Source of the DNA: Fructobacillus broussonetiae
Lineage (GTDB): Bacteria > Bacillota > Bacilli > Lactobacillales > Lactobacillaceae
Direction of reading: 5' to 3'
Assembly (NCBI RefSeq): GCF_018437275.1
Contig: NZ_JAAMFK010000001.1
Span: 186,001-250,000 of the forward strand
DNA: 64,000 nucleotides
Positions 1,051 to 63,038 of the stretch are shown here, one piece after another. The translations under genes were made by a program, and so were the position numbers. The number at the start of each line of letters is the position of its first letter. Within the stretch, counting starts at the first letter, position 1. The notes below the pieces were generated by a model that was given only the letters and a program-made list of their open reading frames with translations, was not told the origin of the DNA and did no database searches.

Positions 1051-1115
1051 TTAATTGAAGTAAATGGCGACGAAGTGTTTCATTGCTTGTCATGACAATC
1101 AAAAAATAAGCATAC

Positions 1116-1175
1116 AAAAAGCCCACAGAACCGTTATTCATGGTCATCCATGTCTAATTATACTGTGGGCTTTTT
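1116..1175. terminator. Bidirectional terminator-like hairpin
   Basis: Arms aaaaagcccacag and ctgtgggcttttt are perfectly complementary across a 35-nt loop, with A-run and T-run at the two ends. It lies between the convergent DUF2798 gene and the small Met-rich gene, so it can serve both. Confidence 0.65.
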
Positions 1176-1263
1176 ATGATGGGTTTCGTTCGGGTCTGAC
1201 TTTTACAAGTAGCCAATACTTATATGGAGCATACCTAACTCCAGGTGTGAAATAATTGGCAGT

Positions 1264-1431
1264 TTAGCAGCCACGCTTGTTGCAGATGGCGGCGTACACG
1301 GCTTGAACAAACATTCCGCCGGCCATCACGTACATTGCCAGCATCATTTGCATCGTTGCAGTGAGGTAGAACGTGTAGGCCCATGCGATGGCCATCACGA
1401 TGTGGAACAAACGATTAAACGTCATGATCAT
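1264..1431 (-). CDS. Small Met-rich membrane protein with C-terminal CX4C
   Basis: A 55-residue ORF in the gap between DUF2798 and the multicopper oxidase. It starts MIMTFNRLFH, has two hydrophobic stretches (about 7-24 and 27-49), nine methionines, and ends in CNKRGC (two Cys in CX4C). The start at 1431 has an AGGAGAG site 6-9 nt upstream (complement of about 1433-1441). A second in-frame ATG at 1425 is possible. It is divergent from the multicopper oxidase with a 144-bp shared promoter region. I do not recognise the family. The Met/Cys content and the neighbour suggest a copper-related role, but that is inference. Confidence 0.7.
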   Translation of the reverse strand: MIMTFNRLFHIVMAIAWAYTFYLTATMQMMLAMYVMAGGMFVQAVYAAICNKRGC

Positions 1432-1512
1432 AACTCTCCTCTAGGTTTATTGGCATCGCTGCCTATAAAAAGCATACCATGATTTCAGAGGGCTTTAAAG
1501 CAGAATCAGTCT

Positions 1513-1549
1513 ATTTTGTAATGACAAAATATGGCCGATTATGTATACT
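1513..1549 (+). promoter_or_regulatory. Promoter and operator of the multicopper oxidase gene
   Basis: ATGACA (1521-1526), a 17-bp spacer and TATACT (1544-1549) make a good sigma-A promoter 27 nt before the start codon at 1576. A perfect inverted repeat, ATTTTGT-AATG-ACAAAAT (1513-1530), covers the -35 box, as expected for a repressor site. It does not match the CopY box TACANNTGTA. The cognate regulator is unknown. Confidence 0.6.
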
Positions 1550-1575
1550 ACCAATAGACCAATTGGAGGAAAAAT

Positions 1576-3123
1576 ATGACAGAGAAACAAGAAGTTTATA
1601 ACGACTACTTTTTCAATGAGTCAGCTTATGACTACCACGACGGTGGTTATGTACCATTGGAAGTACACGAAGCTCCTGCTTCACCATTGAACATCCCAAC
1701 GATTTTGCAACCAGACAAAGAAACAGAAAACGAAGTCTGGATGACGGTTCACGCACAACCTGGCGAAACCCAAATCTTGCCTGGTGCCAAAACGAAGACC
1801 TGGGGTTACAACCAAAGTCTCTTGGGACAAACTATTGTTTTCCATAGCGGAAAGACTTATCACGTTACGTTAAAGAATAGTTTGCCTGAATTGACGACCT
1901 TCCACTGGCACGGATTGGACGTACCTGGTCCCTTCATCGACGGTGGTTGCCACGCCCCCGTTTACCCTGGTGAATCAAAGGAAATTACCTTTACGGTGAA
2001 CCAGGAGGCCTCAACCACTTGGTTGCACGCTCACCCATGTCCTTTGACCGGTTGGGATGTCTGGCACGGACTCGCTGCCATGGCCTACGTGAAGGATGAT
2101 CACGAAGCATCATTGCCATTGCCACGCAACTACGGTGTCGATGACATTCCTGTTGTTTTGCAAGACCGTCGTTTCCACGAAGACAACCAGTGGGACTACG
2201 ATGGTGACTACGATCCTGATGGAACGGCTGGTCCAACTGCGATGTTGAATGGTACGGTTAACCCAACCTTCGACGTTACGACACAAAAGCTCCGCCTTCG
2301 TTTCTTAGACGGATCAAACCGTCGCGAATGGCGTTTGCACTTGTCAGATGACCTCGTGATGACGCAAATCGCTGGTGACGGTGGTTTGTTGCCAGAACCA
2401 GTCAAGATGACGAAGTTGATGATTACCTGTGCCGAACGTGCCGAAGTGATCTTGGACTTCAAGGACTACAAGGCCGGCGATAAGGTAACCCTTTACTCAG
2501 ACGACTGCCCTATCTTGACCTTTAACATCAAGGAATTTGCAGCAGATGACACTGAATTACCTGCTCAATTGAACGAAATCAACTACCCCGAACCTAACAA
2601 GGACGACTTGGTCCACCAAGTCGTTTTGTCAGGAACTGACGAAGAAGTTGGTATCAACGGGAAGAAGTTCGGTATGATGCGTATCGATGACCGCCAAGAA
2701 CTTGGCAAATCCGAATACTGGGACATCACGAACACAAACGACTGCTGCGGTGGTATGTTGCACCCTTACCACATGCACGGTGGTTCATTCCAAATCGTTT
2801 CACGTAACGGTGAAGCGCCCTACCCTAACGAAATGGGATTGAAGGATACGGTTTCGGTTAACCCTGGTGAAACGGTTCGTATCAAGATGCGCTTCAACTT
2901 CGAAGGTGTCTTCATGTACCACTGTCACATCATCGAACACGAAGATGGCGGTATGATGGCCCAGATGCAAGTTTACACGCAAGAAAATCCATACAAGAAG
3001 TACGATTTGATGCCAATGCACGTTTTGATGAATGCCTTGGCCGAAGAACGTGGCTGCAAGGTTGAAGAATTAAAGATTTCAGCCCTTGATTCATACAAGA
3101 AGATGGGCATGGATATGTGCTAA
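1576..3123 (+). CDS. Multicopper oxidase (CotA/CueO/SufI type)
   Basis: 515 residues, normal for a three-cupredoxin-domain multicopper oxidase. All four copper-binding segments are visible: HWHG at 110-113, HAH at 151-153, HPYHMHG at 396-402, and HCHIIEHEDGGM at 449-460 with the type-1 Cys450 and a following Met as axial ligand. Such enzymes couple one-electron oxidation of phenols, Cu(I) or amines to reduction of O2 to water; the lactobacillal members have been studied as amine-degrading laccases (family knowledge). No signal peptide or Tat motif is seen, so a cytoplasmic location is likely. Start supported by TTGGAGG 7 nt upstream. Ends at a strong hairpin (3147-3176). Substrate not predictable. 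Confidence 0.93.
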   Translation: MTEKQEVYNDYFFNESAYDYHDGGYVPLEVHEAPASPLNIPTILQPDKETENEVWMTVHAQPGETQILPGAKTKTWGYNQSLLGQTIVFHSGKTYHVTLKNSLPELTTFHWHGLDVPGPFIDGGCHAPVYPGESKEITFTVNQEASTTWLHAHPCPLTGWDVWHGLAAMAYVKDDHEASLPLPRNYGVDDIPVVLQDRRFHEDNQWDYDGDYDPDGTAGPTAMLNGTVNPTFDVTTQKLRLRFLDGSNRREWRLHLSDDLVMTQIAGDGGLLPEPVKMTKLMITCAERAEVILDFKDYKAGDKVTLYSDDCPILTFNIKEFAADDTELPAQLNEINYPEPNKDDLVHQVVLSGTDEEVGINGKKFGMMRIDDRQELGKSEYWDITNTNDCCGGMLHPYHMHGGSFQIVSRNGEAPYPNEMGLKDTVSVNPGETVRIKMRFNFEGVFMYHCHIIEHEDGGMMAQMQVYTQENPYKKYDLMPMHVLMNALAEERGCKVEELKISALDSYKKMGMDMC

Positions 3124-3146
3124 TGTTTAGCTAATGTCAAAGTCAG

Positions 3147-3176
3147 AGCCGTGGGCGTCTCGCCCGCGGCTTTTTT
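3147..3176 (+). terminator. Intrinsic terminator of the multicopper oxidase gene
   Basis: GC-rich stem AGCCGTGGGCG / CGCCCGCGGCT (one G-U pair) with 3-nt loop, followed by six Ts. An inverted near-copy of the same hairpin lies at 5401-5430. Confidence 0.9.
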
Positions 3177-3252
3177 CTGCGAAAATGTTGGTTTAGTGTT
3201 CTGTTCTAGTGACTGAAAACGCCCCTTCTTTTCTTATTCAAACATCCTTTAT

Positions 3253-3282
3253 TTGGCGTTAAGACAAAAGATTGATTATAAT
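3253..3282 (+). promoter_or_regulatory. Promoter of the marR-type gene
   Basis: TTGGCG (3253-3258), 18-bp spacer, TATAAT (3277-3282), about 34 nt before the start codon at 3316. Confidence 0.55.
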
Positions 3283-3315
3283 GTGTTGTAGACTTCAGTC
3301 AAAGGACAAAAGAGC

Positions 3316-3741
3316 ATGAGCAAGGCAAACGAATTAAACTACCTAATGCGAAACATTCAAATCAATGAGCAGCGCTTGTACAGTGAAAGCACGAAGGAAT
3401 ACCCTCTTTCAACTTCGCAAGCACGGACGCTGGGCTATATCGAAAACAACCCGGGGGTGAATCAAAAAGATCTCTCGGATCATTTCAACATTCGCGGTGC
3501 CAGTACGTCAGTCATTATTAAGAAACTTGTTGAAGGCGGGTACGTAAAAAAAGAAGCTAGTCGTGGCTCTCAAGACCGGTCGAACAAGCTTTACATAACC
3601 GATGAAGGACTCACCCTTTCACATGAGCTTCGTGGTTTATTGTCGAATATTGAAGACACCATTCTCGACGGTTTAACCGAAGAAGAAATCGATGCGCTCA
3701 TCCGTCTGCTCACAAAGATTAATCAAAAGTTCGTTGAATAA
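3316..3741 (+). CDS. MarR family transcriptional regulator
   Basis: 141 residues, the normal size for MarR. A winged helix-turn-helix is visible in the middle: residues about 35-60 carry TLGYIENNPGVNQKDLSDHF, then the recognition helix region ASTSVIIKKLVEGGYVKKE, then the wing RGSQDRSNKLYITDEG. N- and C-terminal helices would form the dimer interface. Start preceded by AAAGGAC. The gene is convergent with the DHA2 exporter and shares its terminator, so it is a good candidate regulator of that exporter: TTAG-CTAA palindromes lie in the exporter's upstream region (5287-5321). Ligand unknown. Confidence 0.88.
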   Translation: MSKANELNYLMRNIQINEQRLYSESTKEYPLSTSQARTLGYIENNPGVNQKDLSDHFNIRGASTSVIIKKLVEGGYVKKEASRGSQDRSNKLYITDEGLTLSHELRGLLSNIEDTILDGLTEEEIDALIRLLTKINQKFVE

Positions 3742-3785
3742 AAAAGACCTGACAAGATCGATTATCCTGTCAGGCCTTTTTATTT
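3742..3785. terminator. Bidirectional terminator between marR and the MFS exporter
   Basis: CCTGACA / TGTCAGG stem flanked by an A-run on the left and a T-run on the right. Confidence 0.8.
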
Positions 3786-3826
3786 GTAAGCTAAATTTAT
3801 ATTAATATTTTAAATACGGTTATTTA

Positions 3827-5245
3827 TTACTTTTCCTTCTTTGTAATGAGCAAAGAAATCAAAATACCAACGAAACCAACTGCCGTTGCAAGCCACAAAG
3901 AAGCTTGTGCGCCGACAATCAAAGCTGAATGAGCGTCTGTGACGTATTGTCCGGCATTTTGAACCAATTCGGTCTTTGATGGCATGTTGTTTGTTGTCAC
4001 GGATTGCATAACTGAAACCAAAGTAGCTGTTCCAATTGATGCCCCAACCTGGCGAACCATGTTGTTACCGGCTGAACCATGAGAAACATCGTCCTTTGGA
4101 AGGGATTGGATACCAATGGTTCCAGCTGGCATCAAGGCGAACGTCAAACCAACGTTACGCAATGCGTAGATGGCGACAACCACCCAGATTGGTGTCGTCA
4201 ATGAGATGAATGAAAGCACCAAAGTAGAAATGGTCATCAAAGTGATACCAAAGATAACCACTTGGCGGCCCTTGTTCTTCTCAACGAACTTTCCAGAAAT
4301 TGGAGCCAAGAAGAACATGACCAAGGCACCAGGAAGAAGCGTCAATCCTGAATCCAAGGCAGACAAGCCACGGGCCGTTTGCAAGTACAGTGGCAAGATG
4401 AATTCAACGGCAACCATTGAAATCTGAGCGATGGCACCGATAACAGAAGTGGCTGCGAAGTTACGCGTCTTGAAGATGTTAAGGTTAAGCATTGGATCAG
4501 AAACAGCGATTTGACGCCAAATCCAACCAATAACAAGAACCAATCCACCAAGAACGTAAGGCGTTGAGTGACCGTTTACCCAGCCGTAGCTAGAGATTTG
4601 TGAAATTCCGTAAAGCAAACCTCCAAAACCAAGAGTCGACAACAAAACGGACAATGGGTCCAACTTCGTTCCCTTGTGAGGCACAACATCAGCCATAAAG
4701 AAGACTGACAAAACCAAAGCAAGAACAATGACTGGCAAAGTGACACCAAAAATCCAGTGCCAGTTAACCGTATCAACGATGTAACCACCCAAGGTTGGAC
4801 CAATGGCCGGTGACAAACCGAATACAAGGCCAAGCAACATCGTTGGCTTTGAAGATTCTTCCTTGTCGAAAACAGAGAAAAGAATCGTCATTGAAAGGCC
4901 GGATAAGATACCAGCACCGACTGCTTGGATAACACGTCCGGCCATCAAAATACCGAAGTTTCCTGAGAGGAATGCCGTGGTCGTTCCAATTAAGAAGATA
5001 GCCAAAGCAGATGAAACTAACTTCTTCGTATCGAAATGATCAGCTAACCAAGCAGAAATTGGAATCAAGATTCCACCAATCAGAGCAAAGACTGTTGAAA
5101 GCCAGTTTGCACTTGAAACTGAAACATTGAAATCCGCGATGATTGCTGGTTGCGCAACAGACAAAATCGTCTGGTTCATCATCCCGACAAAAGCACTCAA
5201 CACAACTACTGTTGCGAGAAGTGCGCGGTTATATGTCTTTTTCAT
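3827..5245 (-). CDS. MFS drug exporter, DHA2 (EmrB/QacA) family
   Basis: 472 residues with about 14 hydrophobic segments, the DHA2 pattern. The first segment holds a motif-C-like region and the sequence MMNQTILSVAQPAIIADFNVS, characteristic of EmrB/QacA proton-coupled drug exporters (conserved pattern LDxTIVNVALP). The N-terminus MKKTYNRALLATVV shows no signal peptide beyond the first helix. RBS AGGAGT before ATG. Likely exports cationic or amphipathic compounds through the cell membrane; substrate not predictable. Upstream lie two TTAG-CTAA palindromes, a possible MarR-type operator. Confidence 0.9.
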   Translation of the reverse strand: MKKTYNRALLATVVVLSAFVGMMNQTILSVAQPAIIADFNVSVSSANWLSTVFALIGGILIPISAWLADHFDTKKLVSSALAIFLIGTTTAFLSGNFGILMAGRVIQAVGAGILSGLSMTILFSVFDKEESSKPTMLLGLVFGLSPAIGPTLGGYIVDTVNWHWIFGVTLPVIVLALVLSVFFMADVVPHKGTKLDPLSVLLSTLGFGGLLYGISQISSYGWVNGHSTPYVLGGLVLVIGWIWRQIAVSDPMLNLNIFKTRNFAATSVIGAIAQISMVAVEFILPLYLQTARGLSALDSGLTLLPGALVMFFLAPISGKFVEKNKGRQVVIFGITLMTISTLVLSFISLTTPIWVVVAIYALRNVGLTFALMPAGTIGIQSLPKDDVSHGSAGNNMVRQVGASIGTATLVSVMQSVTTNNMPSKTELVQNAGQYVTDAHSALIVGAQASLWLATAVGFVGILISLLITKKEK

Positions 5246-5286
5246 AAAACATACTCCTATCTATTTTTTACTGCAAATTAGATCAA

Positions 5287-5321
5287 TTAGCTAACTATTG
5301 CGTACCAAGTTAGTTAACTAA
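5287..5321 (-). promoter_or_regulatory. Candidate operator pair upstream of the MFS exporter
   Basis: TTAGCTAA (5287-5294) and TTAGTTAACTAA (5310-5321) are perfect palindromes sharing TTAG/CTAA ends and lie 42-76 bp upstream of the exporter start. This arrangement is usual for MarR-type dimers; the convergent MarR protein (3316-3741) is the natural candidate. No fully convincing -35/-10 pair was found. Confidence 0.5.
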
Positions 5322-5400
5322 TTTGCTCTGACAAGTATACACCCCGATTAAAAAAATGCAAACAAAATAATAAAAAAGATTTTTTATCTTCAAAAGTCAA

Positions 5401-5430
5401 AGCCGCGGGCGCCTCGCCCACGGCTTTTTT
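5401..5430 (+). terminator. Orphan terminator-like hairpin
   Basis: AGCCGCGGGCG / CGCCCACGGCT stem followed by TTTTTT on the + strand. No + strand gene lies upstream within 1.6 kb (the intervening gene is on the - strand). It is the reverse complement, apart from the loop, of the hairpin at 3147-3171. Confidence 0.55.
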
Positions 5431-5475
5431 CTTACAAACTTGTAAGCATGTTCCCTCCCCCTTTTGTTCTATAAT
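5431..5475 (+). promoter_or_regulatory. Operator-like palindrome and -10 box of the ybjQ-like gene
   Basis: CTTACAA-AC-TTGTAAG (5431-5446) is a perfect inverted repeat. A TATAAT box lies at 5470-5475, 27 nt before the start codon at 5503. No good -35 box at 17 bp. Confidence 0.45.
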
Positions 5476-5502
5476 AAAAACATCATAAGGAGGCAATGTT
5501 AT

Positions 5503-5811
5503 ATGCTTATCTCAACCACAGAAAACATCGGTAAGGACTACGAAGTACTTGGAGAAGTTTTCGGAGTAACCACACAGTCACGTGACCTTGTAAGCAACTT
5601 TGGTGCCAGCTTGAAAAACCTCGTTGGAGGTGAAATCAAAGGCTACACGCAGATGCTTCACACTTCTCGTGAAGAAGCCATTCAGCGCATGACCGAAGAA
5701 GCTGAATCAAAGGGCGCCGACGCCATTGTGATGATGCGTTTCGAATCTGGTTCAATTGGCAATGACATGCAATCTGTTGTGGCCTATGGAACGGCCGTAA
5801 AGTGCCGCTAA
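5503..5811 (+). CDS. YbjQ/UPF0145 family protein
   Basis: 102 residues starting [22 protein letters not shown], the signature start of the UPF0145 (YbjQ) heavy-metal-binding-like family, followed by the conserved stretch [24 protein letters not shown]. The fold is a small pentameric alpha/beta protein of unknown function (family knowledge). An in-frame ATG 39 nt earlier exists, but the AAGGAGG at 5487-5493 fits only the start at 5503. Monocistronic. It ends at the terminator that forms the left copy of the 51-bp direct repeat. Confidence 0.9.
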
Positions 5812-5848: not shown

Positions 5849-5899
5849 AAAAAAGCACCTCGATGCGGAAACATCGAGGTGCTTTTTGTTGTGTGTACT
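5849..5899. repeat. Left copy of 51-bp perfect direct repeat (bidirectional terminator)
   Basis: Contains the stem gcacctcgatg / catcgaggtgc with loop cggaaa, A6 before and T5 after, then gttgtgtgtact. Identical over 51 bases to 8847-8897. Acts as terminator for the ybjQ-like gene (+) and for the helicase gene (-). Confidence 0.97.
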
Positions 5900-5916
5900 T
5901 ATTCAATAAATAAGAT

Positions 5917-8535
5917 TTATCTTTTATTGTATTGTTCAATAATATCCATCATGATTTTTGAATTCTTAATGCCAGAATAAAGAGAACGATCGCCGATAAC
6001 ATAGAGCTTTTCTTTAGAACGAGTAACAGCCACATTTGCGATATTAGCTGTCTTGAATGCCCACGAAGCCGAACTTTTGCTGTCATAATCAGCTCCAAGA
6101 ACAAAAATAACAATTTTATTTTCTTTTCCTTGGAACGTGTGAACTGTTCCAATGGAGTTTGTTGGAATAATTGTCGTTAATTCCTTATTGCGTCTTAAAG
6201 CAGCTACAATCGACTTAAATGGTGAAATAATGTAGATGTCCTTAGCTGCAACTTCGTTGTTCTGAGTCAACTTTTTAACCAACTGAACGGCAGCCAGATT
6301 TTGTTCCTTAACGACTTTATCACTGGCCCTTCCAGAAATATCTAACCATTTAGCAGTTCCCTTAGATCCGACCTTTCCTTGTACCATTCGGTCATTGTAA
6401 GAAAGCTTGTTCGAAATTTCAAACATAGGACTAGAACATCTTCTGTGCACTGTCAAAGGAATTCCGATTCGTTCAACATCTATTGTGAAGCCAAAGCTAC
6501 TTCCATCATCAATCAAGTTTTGAACAGACAGGTCAGCTTGCACATAGTTCTGTGAGACTTGATTTAATTTGGCAAGGTAATCGAATAGCTTCTGGTCCAT
6601 TGTTTGGACTGGTGTAATCTGTTGTGGATCACCAACGGCTAAAACTTTTTTAGCACGAGCGATAGAGCCAACAGCTGCAGCTGGAACAGCCTGCCCTGCT
6701 TCATCAATAAACAAATTGCCGAGTGAGTTTTCACTGAAATGATCAAACATCTTTCCGAAACTAGCAAAAGTGGTTGAAATAACAGGGATGGCGAAGTTAA
6801 TCCAGTGCCAAGCTTCTGCTAGGACTTCTGAATGTTCGGAAAAGCGATTCTTCTGTTTGAAAACCAAGCGGGCATTCTCAAGATTCTTATATTGCTTAAT
6901 CAAGAACTGCTTACGAACAGCTAGTGCTAAAATAAACAGTTCTGTCTGCTTTACTCGGTACTCACGGTTAAAGAACGGATTTCCCATTTGAATCTCATCT
7001 CGATTTAAATCACGATTAAATAACTGATTATCGTATCCATTAATATCACCAGATAAAGAAATAATTACAGCTAAGTCTTTTTCAATGGAATCCAGTGAAG
7101 ACCTTAACGTTTCGACTTTTCGAACTGAGTCTTTCATCTCATTTTCAATGGTTGCTAACTGACTCTTAATATTTTCAACTTTCTCTTTACGTTGCTTAGT
7201 TGCTTCAGGCAATAAAAAACTTAAGAAAGAGATTGAAGAAGCAAATTTAGTAAGGAAAGAATGATTAGTTGCATGCTCGGATAGGTCTCTTTCCATGCTA
7301 TGCAGTTCTAATGTCAAATCAGCTTGTTTTGTTTTCTTTAATGTTACGGAATCTTCTAATTCTGCTAAACGTTTTTGCTTGTCCTTTTTTTCCGTTATTA
7401 ATTTCGCTTTTTTATCGAAGTTCTTCTGAAGCGCATCACGTTGTCCAGAAAGATCGTTATAAAGTTCTTTAAACTGACGGTAAATATTTGTCTGATCTAA
7501 ACTGTTTTCTGATTTCAATTTTTCAACAATTGTACTAATAGTCGAATCAAGAACATTTAGATTAGCTCTTTTACCACCTTCACGAGAAAATTCACCCCAG
7601 CGTGGTTCACTGTTACCGTTGTCGTCTTCTCCCTCGTTAAAATAACCAATATCCCTTACAGCGGAAAGGAACTCTCCATGAATTGCTCCCGCATCAGGCA
7701 ATTCCGCAACGATATTACGAACAGCATCATTGTTACTACTTGCCACTAAGATTTCCAAATCAGAAATCTTCTTATCCAAAAATTCGAGCGTTCCCCTTTT
7801 TTTGTAAGACACCCGAACTTCTTCTCCTCCCTTTACAGCAGTTTCAGGAGAATCCACAATTAATTTAGCCTGCTTTACGATGTAATCAGCAAAGATTTCC
7901 TTCAAGAGTGTTGTTTTACCTGTTCCTGGAGGCCCATTGACACCCTGTATCGCTTCATTATCAAGTACGTTCGTTGTGACGTTTACAGCAACCTGCTGCA
8001 TTAGGCTTAATGAATATTCAGGATTGGAAGGAAAACGGCCTAGTGGATAATATTTAGGCTGTGTATATTCTTTGACCTTTTCTTCATCGTTAAAGTCGAC
8101 AAACGGCTCATTTTGAGATGTTCCATTAATGTACTTTGATAAATTTTTATTATCTGGTAAGCTTTGCCCCCAATTCAAATCATTTAAATAGAACGAATGC
8201 ATGTGATCATCATTATCGAATTTTGTAACAACAGAAAAACGCATATTGTCATACGACTTCGCATACTTTGTGACCATTCGATTGAACGCGTCTTCAAAGT
8301 CTAAGTCACCAAAATCGCTAGCTAGTTTATTCCAGAGCCTTTTCTCACACTGATCAGCCCTAACATTCACAAAATTCTCCACTGTTGTTTCGTAATAAAG
8401 TAAACCGCAGGCAGACAAGTAAACATTGTACTTAGCAAATTCCAATTCATGACTCTTCTTATTAACATCAAAAGAAACCTTCAAACGAAAGCGATTTGAA
8501 TCTTCTGGATTTATAAAAGATTCGACAAAGTTCAT
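5917..8535 (-). CDS. SF1 (UPF1-like, AAA_11/AAA_12) helicase with internal coiled coil
   Basis: 872 residues. Motif I (Walker A) GPPGTGKT is at 201-208; Walker B IDEAG with D611-E612; then DPQQ shortly after, RRCSSP-type motif near 700, TVHTFQGKE at 797-805 and VAVTRSKEKLYVIGD (motif VI) near 838. This set is that of UPF1/Dna2-type superfamily 1 helicases. Between Walker A and Walker B sits a long insert (about 350-500) rich in K/E/L heptads, a likely coiled coil, with a hydrophobic patch near 440. The first 190 residues match no domain I know. The start overlaps the stop of the upstream 82-aa ORF (ATGA) and has no Shine-Dalgarno of its own. Base composition is visibly more A/T-rich than the neighbours. 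Possible roles: phage defence or nucleic acid repair; unproven. Confidence 0.85.
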   Translation of the reverse strand: MNFVESFINPEDSNRFRLKVSFDVNKKSHELEFAKYNVYLSACGLLYYETTVENFVNVRADQCEKRLWNKLASDFGDLDFEDAFNRMVTKYAKSYDNMRFSVVTKFDNDDHMHSFYLNDLNWGQSLPDNKNLSKYINGTSQNEPFVDFNDEEKVKEYTQPKYYPLGRFPSNPEYSLSLMQQVAVNVTTNVLDNEAIQGVNGPPGTGKTTLLKEIFADYIVKQAKLIVDSPETAVKGGEEVRVSYKKRGTLEFLDKKISDLEILVASSNNDAVRNIVAELPDAGAIHGEFLSAVRDIGYFNEGEDDNGNSEPRWGEFSREGGKRANLNVLDSTISTIVEKLKSENSLDQTNIYRQFKELYNDLSGQRDALQKNFDKKAKLITEKKDKQKRLAELEDSVTLKKTKQADLTLELHSMERDLSEHATNHSFLTKFASSISFLSFLLPEATKQRKEKVENIKSQLATIENEMKDSVRKVETLRSSLDSIEKDLAVIISLSGDINGYDNQLFNRDLNRDEIQMGNPFFNREYRVKQTELFILALAVRKQFLIKQYKNLENARLVFKQKNRFSEHSEVLAEAWHWINFAIPVISTTFASFGKMFDHFSENSLGNLFIDEAGQAVPAAAVGSIARAKKVLAVGDPQQITPVQTMDQKLFDYLAKLNQVSQNYVQADLSVQNLIDDGSSFGFTIDVERIGIPLTVHRRCSSPMFEISNKLSYNDRMVQGKVGSKGTAKWLDISGRASDKVVKEQNLAAVQLVKKLTQNNEVAAKDIYIISPFKSIVAALRRNKELTTIIPTNSIGTVHTFQGKENKIVIFVLGADYDSKSSASWAFKTANIANVAVTRSKEKLYVIGDRSLYSGIKNSKIMMDIIEQYNKR

Positions 8536-8780
8536 TTCTTGCTGAATTTTTTTAAAATCTTTTTAGTATCCAATAAATCCAAATAAACATTTACCTTTAA
8601 ATCAGCCTTAGCAGATTTCTTATCGATTAATATGTTTACCCGATGAATAAAATCATCATAATTATCTGCCGTTCGATAGAACGGAACCTTACCGTTTTTA
8701 CGATTAAGATCAATGGCACCGTCATCCAAACACTCGGCTAAAGCCCATGTTTGTAATACATTTTTTACACTATTATCCAT
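8532..8780 (-). CDS. Small protein upstream of, and probably N-terminal part of, the helicase
   Basis: 82 residues starting MDNSVKNVLQTWALAECLDDG, ending in a Lys-rich KKILKKFSKK. The start at 8780 is chosen over the earlier in-frame one because GGGGAGAGG lies 7 nt upstream. The stop codon TGA overlaps the helicase ATG. Just before it lies T TTA AAA (complement of 8556-8550) in the correct phase; a -1 shift there would give KIQQEMNF and read into the helicase. It may therefore be (a) a coupled separate gene, (b) the N-terminus of a frameshift fusion, or (c) the front half of a gene split by a one-base loss in A8. The sequence resembles the first 80 residues seen on long SF1 helicases more than a free protein (impression). 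Confidence 0.7.
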   Translation of the reverse strand: MDNSVKNVLQTWALAECLDDGAIDLNRKNGKVPFYRTADNYDDFIHRVNILIDKKSAKADLKVNVYLDLLDTKKILKKFSKK

Positions 8781-8846
8781 ATCTATCCTCTCCCCTTCAT
8801 TGTACAGACATATTAGTGTCACTTCTACATCTCTTTATACATCAGC

Positions 8847-8897
8847 AAAAAAGCACCTCGATGCGGAAACATCGAGGTGCTTTTTGTTGTGTGTACT
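8847..8897. repeat. Right copy of 51-bp perfect direct repeat (bidirectional terminator)
   Basis: Identical to 5849-5899. On the - strand it terminates the 63-aa membrane protein gene (8948-9139); on the + strand it has no gene to terminate, which suggests it was displaced from the ybjQ-like gene by the cassette. Confidence 0.97.
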
Positions 8898-8947: not shown

Positions 8948-9139
8948 TTATGATTGGTAGCGGCGCTTTTTCAAAGAGAATAAGAAGCGCGTACCGATGT
9001 ACACCAAACGGAAAAACACAAGTTCAAAAGCCGCGCTAGCGATCATGTTTGAAGGTGTCATGTTAAAGTATGAAGCAAGAAACGTCGTAATGAAAACGAT
9101 GAACGTTCCAACTAAAATTTCAGGCAATGCCTTAATCAT
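8948..9139 (-). CDS. Small two-helix membrane protein, unknown
   Basis: 63 residues from MIKALPEILVGTFIV, with hydrophobic segments at about 6-25 and 31-52 and a basic end LKKRRYQS, suggesting two membrane helices with the C-terminus in the cytoplasm. The start at 9139 has GGGGAG 6 nt upstream, so the ATG 24 nt earlier is not used. The 5' region has an inverted repeat AAGAGTC...GACTCTT (9155-9180). I do not recognise the family. In the ancestral arrangement it was probably the convergent neighbour of the ybjQ-like gene. Confidence 0.65.
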   Translation of the reverse strand: MIKALPEILVGTFIVFITTFLASYFNMTPSNMIASAAFELVFFRLVYIGTRFLFSLKKRRYQS

Positions 9140-9154
9140 CTTGTCTCCCCTTTT

Positions 9155-9180: not shown

Positions 9181-9477
9181 AAACTAAATTCTCTCTAATT
9201 TCTATCACTACATTCAGATTAGCACCCTCTTTGTCCGATTCCCATTGATAAGAAAATACGTTTCTTTCCCTTTGATAACACCTGTTATCGAATAAGTAAT
9301 ATATTGCAGTTATTTAACAAGGAAGTAAAATAACTCGCATAAAAAAAGCACTGGAATGACTTTTATAAGTGCAATTCCAGCGCTTTTATTCATCTTACAG
9401 AATAAGTTATGAGACAATCTGATAACGATTGCCATATGTTATGGCATAGCCCTGTGGGCCTGGTACGGGTTTGACTT
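9181..9477. other. Intergenic region, about 300 bp, with palindromes and one terminator
   Basis: No ORF of note. It holds GATAAC-ACCT-GTTATC (9274-9289), a terminator hairpin (9343-9388), and TGCCATA-TGT-TATGGCA (9430-9446). A possible + strand promoter TTGATA...TAATAT (9272-9302, spacer 19) has no gene downstream before the terminator, so a short RNA of roughly 80 nt is conceivable. Confidence 0.4.
9343..9388. terminator. Terminator hairpin downstream of the yeiH-like gene
   Basis: Stem around CTGGAAT / ATTCCAG with A7 on the left and T4 on the right; works best on the - strand. Confidence 0.7.
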
Positions 9478-10473
9478 TTACAGCAATGTCTTGATCAAGA
9501 TAAAGGCCAAAATTACCTGAATTGCGCCTACAACGAATCCGAATGACAAGAACTTAACCCCCGATTTCTTGATAACTGTCCACTTTAAATTCAAGCCGAT
9601 GGCGGCCAAGTTGACCACCCCGAAGAATGATGAAAGTGTCTTTGCTACGTGGTGCGCGCCGTCAGGCAAGGCCGTTATGGAGTTGAGGACGACCAATGCT
9701 ACGAACGTGATGACATACCACGGGAAGAGTGTCACCTTCTTCTTTTCCGCTTCTTCCACGTCCTTTTGACTCTTCTTGTTAATGGCCGCGAATGACAAAA
9801 CCACAACGACGAGCAGCATCACGCGGAGGAGTTTGAAAAGCGTGGCGTACGTCACAACCGTTGGGTTGATTAACGCAGCCGTTCCGACTACCTGCCCCAC
9901 TGACTGAACCGTTCCACCAACCATGGCTCCTCGGAGGATATCGTGGTTACCAAACAATGTTCCAGTCAACGCTGGCAAGATGAAAAGCAAGAGCATTCCG
10001 GTCAATGAAACCGTGGCGACGGCCGTTCTGCGGTCATCGTCCTTGGAATCAATCACTGGTGCAACGGCTGCGATGGCAGACGATCCACACACAGCGTTTC
10101 CGGCACCCATGAGCATGCTTTCCTTCAGTGATACCTTGAACACGTAGCGGCCCAACAAGAAGACGGAAGCGATGATTAATACCATGTTAATGACAATGAA
10201 AGCAACGCCGTTTATCCCTAAGCTTTTAATGGTTTGAAAAGTCAAAGTCGAACCAAGCAGTGCGATGCCCACTTCGATTGGATATTTCTCAGACCACTTT
10301 ACACCTGAAGCAAAGCTTTCAGCAGTTAAAAGCGTGTTTCCAAGAATCAGGCCGAGAATCATCGCGATGCCTTCGGCCCCAATTTTTGGGAAGAATTTAG
10401 CTAAGTAAGAAGACAAAACGGAGAGAATCACTACGAGTACGATTCCTGACCACTGCTCTTTTTTAATACGCAT
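9478..10473 (-). CDS. YeiH/UPF0324 family putative sulfate exporter
   Basis: 331 residues, about ten membrane segments. The sequence has the hallmarks of the PSE (putative sulfate exporter, YeiH) family: GLILGN near the end of the second helix, and GAGNAVCGSSAIAAVAPVI in the centre. Family members are integral membrane proteins with no firmly established substrate in Gram-positives. Start MRIKKEQWSG; the upstream GAGAG is a weak ribosome site. Divergent from the HAD phosphatase gene. Its stop codon lies within a short motif (CGGGTTTGACTTTTA) that recurs after other genes of the window. Confidence 0.88.
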   Translation of the reverse strand: MRIKKEQWSGIVLVVILSVLSSYLAKFFPKIGAEGIAMILGLILGNTLLTAESFASGVKWSEKYPIEVGIALLGSTLTFQTIKSLGINGVAFIVINMVLIIASVFLLGRYVFKVSLKESMLMGAGNAVCGSSAIAAVAPVIDSKDDDRRTAVATVSLTGMLLLFILPALTGTLFGNHDILRGAMVGGTVQSVGQVVGTAALINPTVVTYATLFKLLRVMLLVVVVLSFAAINKKSQKDVEEAEKKKVTLFPWYVITFVALVVLNSITALPDGAHHVAKTLSSFFGVVNLAAIGLNLKWTVIKKSGVKFLSFGFVVGAIQVILAFILIKTLL

Positions 10474-62828: not shown

Positions 62829-63038
62829 AGTGAAACTCCTAACTGAATTTCTTTACTTAGTTTTATTCTAAATCAGTTTTATCGATTTTTCAATCTTACC
62901 TCTTAGATATCTGAATTCTTTTAAATATATAAAAGTCAAAACCGGACTAGCATGCTAATCCACAGCGTTAATTTAGAAAATAAAAAAGCAGACCGCACCG
63001 GGTCTGACTTTTATATTTATTCTAAACTAGAATAATTC
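62829..63038. other. Intergenic region between oxidoreductase and lepA
   Basis: Holds the near-palindrome GGACTAGCATGCTAATCC (62943-62960) and the lepA terminator (62982-63014). Also a CCGGTTTTGACTTTT motif on the - strand near 62931-62945, a relative of the dispersed motif. No ORF. Confidence 0.5.
62982..63014 (-). terminator. Terminator of lepA
   Basis: GTCAGACC / GGTCTGC stem and T6 on the - strand. Confidence 0.85.

What the first reader, a model, noticed from the sequence alone, without database searches (positions are those of the whole stretch)
5849..8897. Helicase cassette inserted into a shared terminator with 51-bp perfect direct repeat
5849-5899 and 8847-8897 are identical over 51 bases and both are bidirectional terminator hairpins. 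The left copy ends the ybjQ-like gene (+); the right copy ends the 63-aa membrane protein gene (-) but has no + strand gene to terminate. The simplest history is an ancestral ybjQ - terminator - small membrane gene, with a roughly 3.0-kb helicase cassette (one repeat plus 2947 bp) inserted by an event that duplicated the terminator. The cassette is visibly more A/T-rich and has no integrase or inverted ends. Terminators are known to serve as landing sites; a homologous event at a terminator is also possible. This looks like a mobile accessory, perhaps a defence, module.
Basis: partly seen in the sequence, partly recalled or inferred. Interest (0 to 1): 0.72.

Follow-up and report, generated by a model that had tools for sequence, protein, structure and literature searches.

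The report
Helicase gene inserted at duplicated terminator
A single helicase gene, probably related to phage defence, has been inserted between two neighbouring genes of a small bacterial genome so that their shared transcription terminator is now found at both of its ends, and several other gene modules in the same genome are bounded by near-identical terminators in the same way although no integrase or transposase is seen in the cassette.

Summary
In detail: 5849-5899 and 8847-8897 are identical over 51 bp, both are strong terminator hairpins, and the sequence has only these two copies in the held host genome. The predicted empty site exists: a congener (G006) has ybjQ, ONE homologous terminator and the small membrane gene, without the helicase; none of 12 other congeners has the helicase. 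The cassette is 36.6% GC (window 45.7%). An insertion that duplicated a terminator is well supported. Two things were missed. The helicase is broken into 82-aa and 872-aa frames at an A7 run. And the pattern recurs: the adjacent MarR-MFS pair is bounded by another duplicated terminator (3139-3178 / 5393-5432), and 482 kb of this genome holds seven such intervals in four clusters, against none in 1.02 Mb of three congeners. The protein is a UPF1-like SF1 helicase with a coiled-coil insertion, like Mokosh MkoC and CoCoNuT CnuH, without their partner domains or genes. Best mechanism (inferred): short-homology recombination at terminators.

The parts
5849..5899 (.). left copy of the 51-bp direct repeat: bidirectional terminator hairpin (5850-5887) plus 12 bp; ends ybjQ (+) and the helicase (-)
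8847..8897 (.). right copy of the 51-bp repeat; ends the small membrane gene (-)
5900..8846 (-). inserted cassette, 2947 bp, 36.6% GC
   Evidence: absent at the orthologous place of G006
5917..8535 (-). 872-aa UPF1-like SF1 helicase frame (AAA_11 + AAA_12; long helical insertion about residues 350-495 between Walker A and Walker B)
8532..8780 (-). 82-aa frame encoding the N-terminal part of the same ancestral protein; separated by a frameshift at an A7 run
5503..5811 (+). ybjQ-like flanking gene (102 aa from its ATG)
8948..9142 (-). 64-aa flanking gene (membrane protein by eye)
3139..3178 (.). left copy of a second duplicated terminator (40 bp, 90% to 5393-5432), after the multicopper oxidase gene
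5393..5432 (.). right copy of the second duplicated terminator, before ybjQ
3179..5392 (.). second terminator-bounded module: MarR regulator (3316-3741 +) and MFS transporter (3827-5245 -), 42.3% GC; best congener match of this MFS is 38% identical

Best explanation
A one-gene module (UPF1-like SF1 helicase) entered a convergent gene pair at their single shared terminator, and the event left one terminator copy at each end. SHOWN: exact duplication, low GC, empty site in a congener, absence from the 12 other congeners, further terminator-bounded modules in the same genome. INFERRED: the event was recombination through the short terminator homology (a circle or tandem carrying one terminator copy integrating by a single crossover, or strand annealing/template switching at the hairpin), not integrase or transposase action; the same route brought the neighbouring MarR-MFS pair and other modules. 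INFERRED function: an ATP-driven UPF1-like nucleic-acid helicase (RNA or ssDNA) acting as the sensor part of an anti-phage module, as proposed for Mokosh and CoCoNuT; the present copy is frameshifted, so either the 872-aa product is made by re-initiation at the overlapping ATG, or the gene is decaying, or the run is a sequencing error.
For: Exact 51-bp pair, only two copies in the held genome. Empty site in G006. Helicase in 1 of 13 genus genomes and 8 of 397 family genomes, own included. On contig C1 (301,961 b, 87 called terminators, 3741 pairs) 3 of the 4 pairs scoring 25 or more lie under 5 kb apart, p 2e-4 by hypergeometric. Seven intervals in four clusters are bounded by near-identical terminators in 482 kb (C1, C7), none in 1.02 Mb of G006, G007, G001 (the hairpin caller marked both copies in 4 of the 7; the copies it missed fold as hairpins of the same design). 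The M20-NlpA and HAD/permease modules have no tblastx match in 400 kb of G006 and are missing at the corresponding places. At C7 terminators are 97-100% alike between two related genes (one scanned: Muc_B2-type) only 64% alike, and the branched-chain transporter pair is 66% alike with 94% alike terminators. Repeats of 29-85 bp vary in length and sequence from module to module, unlike a transposase target duplication or one att site. Relatives: the Leuconostoc inhae helicase is flanked by terminator plus HxlR 3' end, a Bryobacteraceae MAG by 119 bp of the convergent gene's 3' end at 99%, G612 and G419 by a hairpin repeat with two copies in each genome.
Against: Of 127 helicase loci (window included), 14 had too little flank; of the 113 tested only 5 are flanked, window included. 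Without the window, 4 of 112 against 4 of 381 control intervals, p 0.08; after dropping one control that is a helicase-linked HxlR remnant and merging two overlapping ones, p 0.026; counting G612/G419 once, 0.08 or 0.20. Twenty extra relatives from class and phylum searches gave none. Three of the seven host intervals (second branched-chain transporter, surface A, surface B) involve tandem paralogues, where old duplication with later terminator homogenisation is possible. The HAD copy at C1 64.5 kb looks, by eye, like an internally deleted paralogue. The excess of clusters over congeners gives p 0.01 per base and 0.04 per terminator, computed after the pattern was seen. The congeners do hold other close repeats at or in genes: G007 one of 90 bp at a gene end, G006 one of 200 bp, 76% coding, 3.2 kb apart. 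No donor, circle or identical terminator was found elsewhere.
Confidence: 0.6

Rival explanations
1. The cassette is a non-autonomous element moved in trans by a site-specific recombinase; the 51 bp are attL/attR (or hairpin ends of an IS200/IS605-like single-strand transposon).
For: Integrative elements often use gene 3' ends and leave direct repeats (established knowledge); in L157 and L033 the repeat contains the 3' end of the convergent gene. Several viral-collection relatives lie close to an end of their contig.
Against: No recombinase-like ORF noticed by eye around the module; repeats of different modules share no core sequence; G006 has the terminator without the element, so the hairpin is native. 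The host genome was not searched with a recombinase family.
Confidence: 0.2
2. The repeat arose as a by-product: a transposon-borne or replication-error insertion (template switching at the hairpin) whose carrier has been lost.
For: The right copy folds further than the left (TACATCAGC on the cassette side pairs with GTTGTGTGTA), so the copies are not equivalent and one may be templated from the other.
Against: No transposase remnant noticed; repeats of 29-85 bp are far longer than usual target duplications (established knowledge).
Confidence: 0.13
3. No insertion with duplication: two terminators were there before or became alike by gene conversion, and relatives lost the helicase.
For: Similar terminators also lie beside tandem paralogues in this genome.
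Against: One terminator and about 107 bp in G006; helicase absent from all 12 other congeners; 36.6% GC; exact identity stops at or within 12 bp of the hairpin.
Confidence: 0.07

Closest known systems
Mokosh type II (MkoC helicase-PLD protein)
   Same: Helicase part: PADLOC MkoC profile 150-953 of 1136 matches at 2.2e-70; five relatives scanned also match.
   Different: The profile's last part (after 953) is not covered in the window protein or in the five relatives; no PLD domain by Pfam in the window protein and three relatives scanned as L075, L157, L033 plus L060. A paper describes MkoC as RNA helicase plus PLD nuclease (PMC10013915, passage).
CnuH helicase of CoCoNuT type II/III systems
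   Same: UPF1-like SF1 helicase with a large helical, coiled-coil insertion after Walker A (PMC11090510, passages; model here).
   Different: No McrB/McrC-like or nuclease gene among the neighbours scanned: YbjQ, MFS, a 64-aa protein, a Cons_hypoth698 protein, MarR and multicopper oxidase.
Integrative elements and islands using gene 3' ends (attL/attR; recalled)
   Same: Direct repeats containing a terminator or gene 3' end on both sides.
   Different: 3 kb, one gene, no integrase seen, a different repeat for each module.
Minimal mobile elements (recalled; Neisseria)
   Same: Small exchangeable gene sets between conserved flanking genes, moved by homologous recombination without own mobility genes.
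   Different: Not defined by duplicated terminators (recalled; not looked up).
UPF1 / IGHMBP2 / Sen1-senataxin helicases
   Same: Best sequence matches and leading fold matches in solved structures.
   Different: 11-21% identity in the 50 fold matches listed; global superposition poor (TM about 0.2-0.5).

Membership tests
UPF1-like SF1 helicase | AAA_11 and AAA_12 domains with Walker A and Walker B | tested here: met
   Pfam 1.6e-17 and 7e-14; invariant NGPPGTGKTT and DEAGQ in 13 sequences
UPF1-like SF1 helicase | fold like UPF1/IGHMBP2/Sen1 | tested here: met
   Foldseek against PDB: senataxin, Sen1, spliceosome chains, IGHMBP2 and UPF1 head the list, E 2e-17 to 1e-11; model mean pLDDT 74.8
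Mokosh type II | helicase region like MkoC | tested here: met
   PADLOC 2.2e-70
Mokosh type II | C-terminal PLD nuclease in the same protein | tested here: not met
   profile after 953 unmatched; no PLD hit in Pfam
CoCoNuT type II/III | CnuB/CnuC (McrB/McrC-like) and nuclease genes alongside | tested here: not met
   four scanned neighbours plus MarR and multicopper oxidase are none of these; other ORFs were not scanned
Site-specific integrative element | direct-repeat att-like ends | tested here: met
   51-bp repeat
Site-specific integrative element | integrase in the element | tested here: not met
   apart from the helicase frames no ORF above 73 aa lies in 5900-8846
Transposon | terminal inverted repeats and transposase | tested here: not met
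   only the hairpins pair; no second gene
Anti-phage defence gene | protects against phage when expressed | not testable with these tools
   inferred from PADLOC and literature relatives only
Programmed -1 frameshift gene | stimulating structure downstream and a conserved split | tested here: not met
   fold of the region z -0.46; intact homologues read straight through here

The most novel reading that the evidence does not exclude
Intrinsic terminators act as docking sites for an integrase-free traffic of small gene modules in this lineage: modules bounded by identical terminators leave as circles and enter at any matching terminator by short-homology recombination, so that accessory genes, among them solo defence helicases, spread and stay transcriptionally insulated without a mobile element of their own.
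Probability: 0.22. Interest if true: 0.8.

Novelty: new variant of a known kind. Interest (0 to 1): 0.52.

Why it matters
Single accessory genes, defence genes in particular, often appear in genomes with no phage, plasmid or integrase attached, and how they got there is usually unknown. Here the scar is still readable: a terminator at both ends, an empty site in a relative and several siblings in one genome. If terminator-anchored recombination is the route, it predicts where solo genes land, why they stay insulated from their neighbours, and that they can be lost precisely; all of this can be tested with strain collections and simple PCR.

Tried and rejected
Helicase relatives in plasmid records: no blastn match; 620 records match at protein level, none above 60% identity. 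Phage records: two DNA matches, to the ybjQ part only, in unannotated records; three weak protein matches. Donor search for the terminator: no exact match in viral contigs, none in plasmids; for the MarR-MFS module none in plasmids. The named-genome scan with the single protein found no relative; the alignment-based one kept 80 of 468. Programmed frameshifting was considered and dropped.

Terminator-bounded repeats elsewhere: in 101 fetched loci (1.49 Mb, 127 called hairpins) only L033 has both copies called as terminators, so the pattern is not universal; L029, L090, L098, L115 and L120 hold other close repeats, mostly non-coding, that were not followed up.

Literature: searches listed no paper on terminator-bounded insertions by title or abstract start (15 of 180, 10 of 10, 12 of 94, 4 of 4, 9 of 9 matches listed); the library lacks most subscription journals. 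Papers: PMC10952713, PMC11090510 and PMC10013915, passages only; PMC9934391, abstract and outline; all others, search listing only.

Rows dropped: L094, L096, L102 left out as the same DNA as L029, L033, L070 (checked on a 1-kb piece each). In some searches L190, L201, L204 were left out and L185 was not taken (genomes already in, or half of a gene). Of the 28 order genomes, five (G437, G478, G512, G526, G550) were not fetched for the flank test; the 17 viral loci were not tested either. Controls: up to six random intervals per locus of 8 kb or more, window not used; one search dropped one control (L032) and merged two overlapping ones (L120); one search gives the undropped counts.
Full report
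WHAT WAS CLAIMED AND WHAT IS THERE. The two 51-bp copies are exact and cannot be extended as an exact match. Both are strong hairpins with A/T tails. In the held host genome (G000, 1,265,753 bases, 13 contigs, 91.8% complete) the sequence has no third direct copy. Between them lie 2947 bp at 36.6% GC; no other window of that size in the 64 kb is as low (0 of 245), and 8 of 1496 on the contig are. Unrelated terminators are not that alike: in the window 118 of 120 hairpin pairs score 12 or less, while this pair scores 51.

THE GENE. The large frame 5917-8535 (-) encodes 872 aa with AAA_11 and AAA_12 helicase domains. Upstream, ORF 8532-8780 encodes 82 aa and overlaps it by ATGA. Reading from the first to the second frame through a -1 shift at an A7 run gives 954 aa that align with intact relatives of about 1000 aa from residue 3. 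So the gene is broken, is read by re-initiation, or carries a sequencing error; the fold of the region gives no support for programmed frameshifting (z -0.46). Some relatives in the same order are split too (L028, L031/L032, L070, L076). The model (mean pLDDT 74.8) has a long helical insertion, residues about 350-495, between Walker A and Walker B; solved structures that head its fold list are senataxin, Sen1, spliceosome chains, IGHMBP2 and UPF1. PADLOC's MkoC profile matches at 2e-70 over 150-953 of 1136, leaving out the last part. CoCoNuT CnuH helicases are described as UPF1-like with a coiled-coil insertion after Walker A (PMC11090510, passages). The protein therefore works, most likely, as the helicase half of such a defence module; membership in Mokosh II or CoCoNuT is not met.

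THE EMPTY SITE. In the genus set the helicase is in 1 of 13 genomes, the ybjQ gene in 2 of 13, the small membrane gene in 4 of 13, own genome included. G006 has both flanking genes, convergent, about 107 bp apart, with one terminator of the same design. The left copy's outer flank resembles the G006 flank next to ybjQ (by eye). In wider sets relatives of the helicase are uncommon: 8 of 397 family genomes at 1e-20, 28 of 395 order genomes at 1e-25, and with an alignment 17 of 398 class and 7 of 398 phylum genomes at 1e-80, own genome included each time.

IT IS NOT ALONE. The module next to it in the window, MarR (3316-3741 +) and MFS (3827-5245 -), is bounded by a second duplicated terminator, 3139-3178 and 5393-5432, 90% alike over 40 bp. 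The best other match of this MFS in the genus is 38% identical. On contig C1 (87 called terminators) further close, near-identical terminators bound a stretch with an HAD hydrolase and, by eye, a permease (64545-64626 / 69247-69330, 85% over 85 columns), an M20 peptidase-NlpA lipoprotein pair (130926-130963 / 133218-133255, 38 bp exact) and the second of two branched-chain transporter genes (129177-129212 / 130925-130960, 94%); on C7 three copies follow a GAPDH gene and two related genes, one of them scanned and Muc_B2-type (99730, 101148, 102548). That makes seven intervals in four clusters in 482 kb. The hairpin caller marked both copies in four of the seven; the missed copies fold as hairpins of the same design. 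The M20-NlpA pair and the HAD stretch have no tblastx match in 400 kb of G006 and are missing at the corresponding places. At C7 the terminators are 97-100% alike while the two related genes are 64% alike, which plain tandem gene duplication does not give. In G006 (400 kb), G007 (220 kb) and G001 (400 kb) the same scan finds no terminator pair; G007 has one 90-bp repeat at a gene end and G006 one 200-bp, 76% coding repeat 3.2 kb apart. If rates were equal, four clusters all falling in G000 has p 0.01 by length and 0.04 by terminator number; these tests were made after the pattern was seen.

RELATIVES WITH THE SAME SCAR. In two further genomes of the Leuconostoc inhae genus (G094, G347) a short HxlR 3'-end remnant lies about 200 bp upstream of the helicase although HxlR itself is 5 kb away, so that piece seems to travel with the cassette. 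Control intervals of similar size in the same loci gave 4 of 381, in three loci, one of them this HxlR remnant. Without the window this is 4 of 112 against 4 of 381, p 0.08; p 0.026 with the corrected controls; weaker if L075 and L076 count once (0.08; 0.20). In L033 and L157 a copy of the end of the convergent downstream gene sits upstream of the helicase; this topology is more telling than the counts, but it rests on few cases.

MECHANISM. Shown: duplication, empty site, recurrence. Inferred: recombination through the terminator. A circle with one terminator copy, or a tandem, crossing over with the chromosomal terminator gives the observed order, and the differing repeat lengths and sequences argue against a single recombinase site. 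The right copy's stem is longer than the left's because TACATCAGC on the cassette side pairs with GTTGTGTGTA; this suggests that the right unit is the complete one, though a short TTCAATAA match of the left inner flank to G006 (by eye) points the other way. I could not decide which copy is ancestral.

NAME OF THE ORGANISM. Not given by any search. Genome sizes (1.2-1.7 Mb in the genus set) and gene content suggest Fructobacillus or a close genus (genome range of Fructobacillus 1.15-1.75 Mb from the abstract of PMC9934391); this is inference.

Noticed in passing
window 1051-5502: G006 has the 155-aa gene directly followed by ybjQ, so the multicopper oxidase, MarR and MFS genes as well as the helicase are extra here: the place looks like an insertion hotspot. 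The oxidase occurs in 8 of 13 genus genomes; in G007 it lies about 22 kb away from the 155-aa gene.
   Followed up: partly
window 1192-1207, 9467-9482, 63000-63015; C1 108, 32622, 254429 of G000: A dispersed hairpin family ending in GGGTCTGACTTTTACA or similar; 4 matches in the window within 2 mismatches (one overlapping the 3139 terminator) against 0.1 expected.
   Followed up: no
L076 6386-6898 and L075 6006-6539: Beside related helicases in two genomes of one genus lie different small genes inside the repeat-bounded interval: an Mrr-type nuclease (Mrr_cat 6e-29) with, by eye, an N-terminal hydrophobic stretch, and a gene whose start matches helix-turn-helix-type PADLOC profiles. The partner may be exchangeable.
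   Followed up: partly
L313-L329: 17 viral-collection loci encode relatives of the helicase, several of them close to an end of the contig, as if cargo at prophage borders.
   Followed up: no
L029 5350-5446, 7542-7638, 13976-14148: A repeated non-coding element around the Liquorilactobacillus satsumensis helicase, three or more copies in 9 kb.
   Followed up: no
C1 64500-64660 of G000: Apparent internally deleted copy of the HAD gene (its start joined to its end, by eye) followed by the terminator shared with the intact HAD gene 4.7 kb on.
   Followed up: partly
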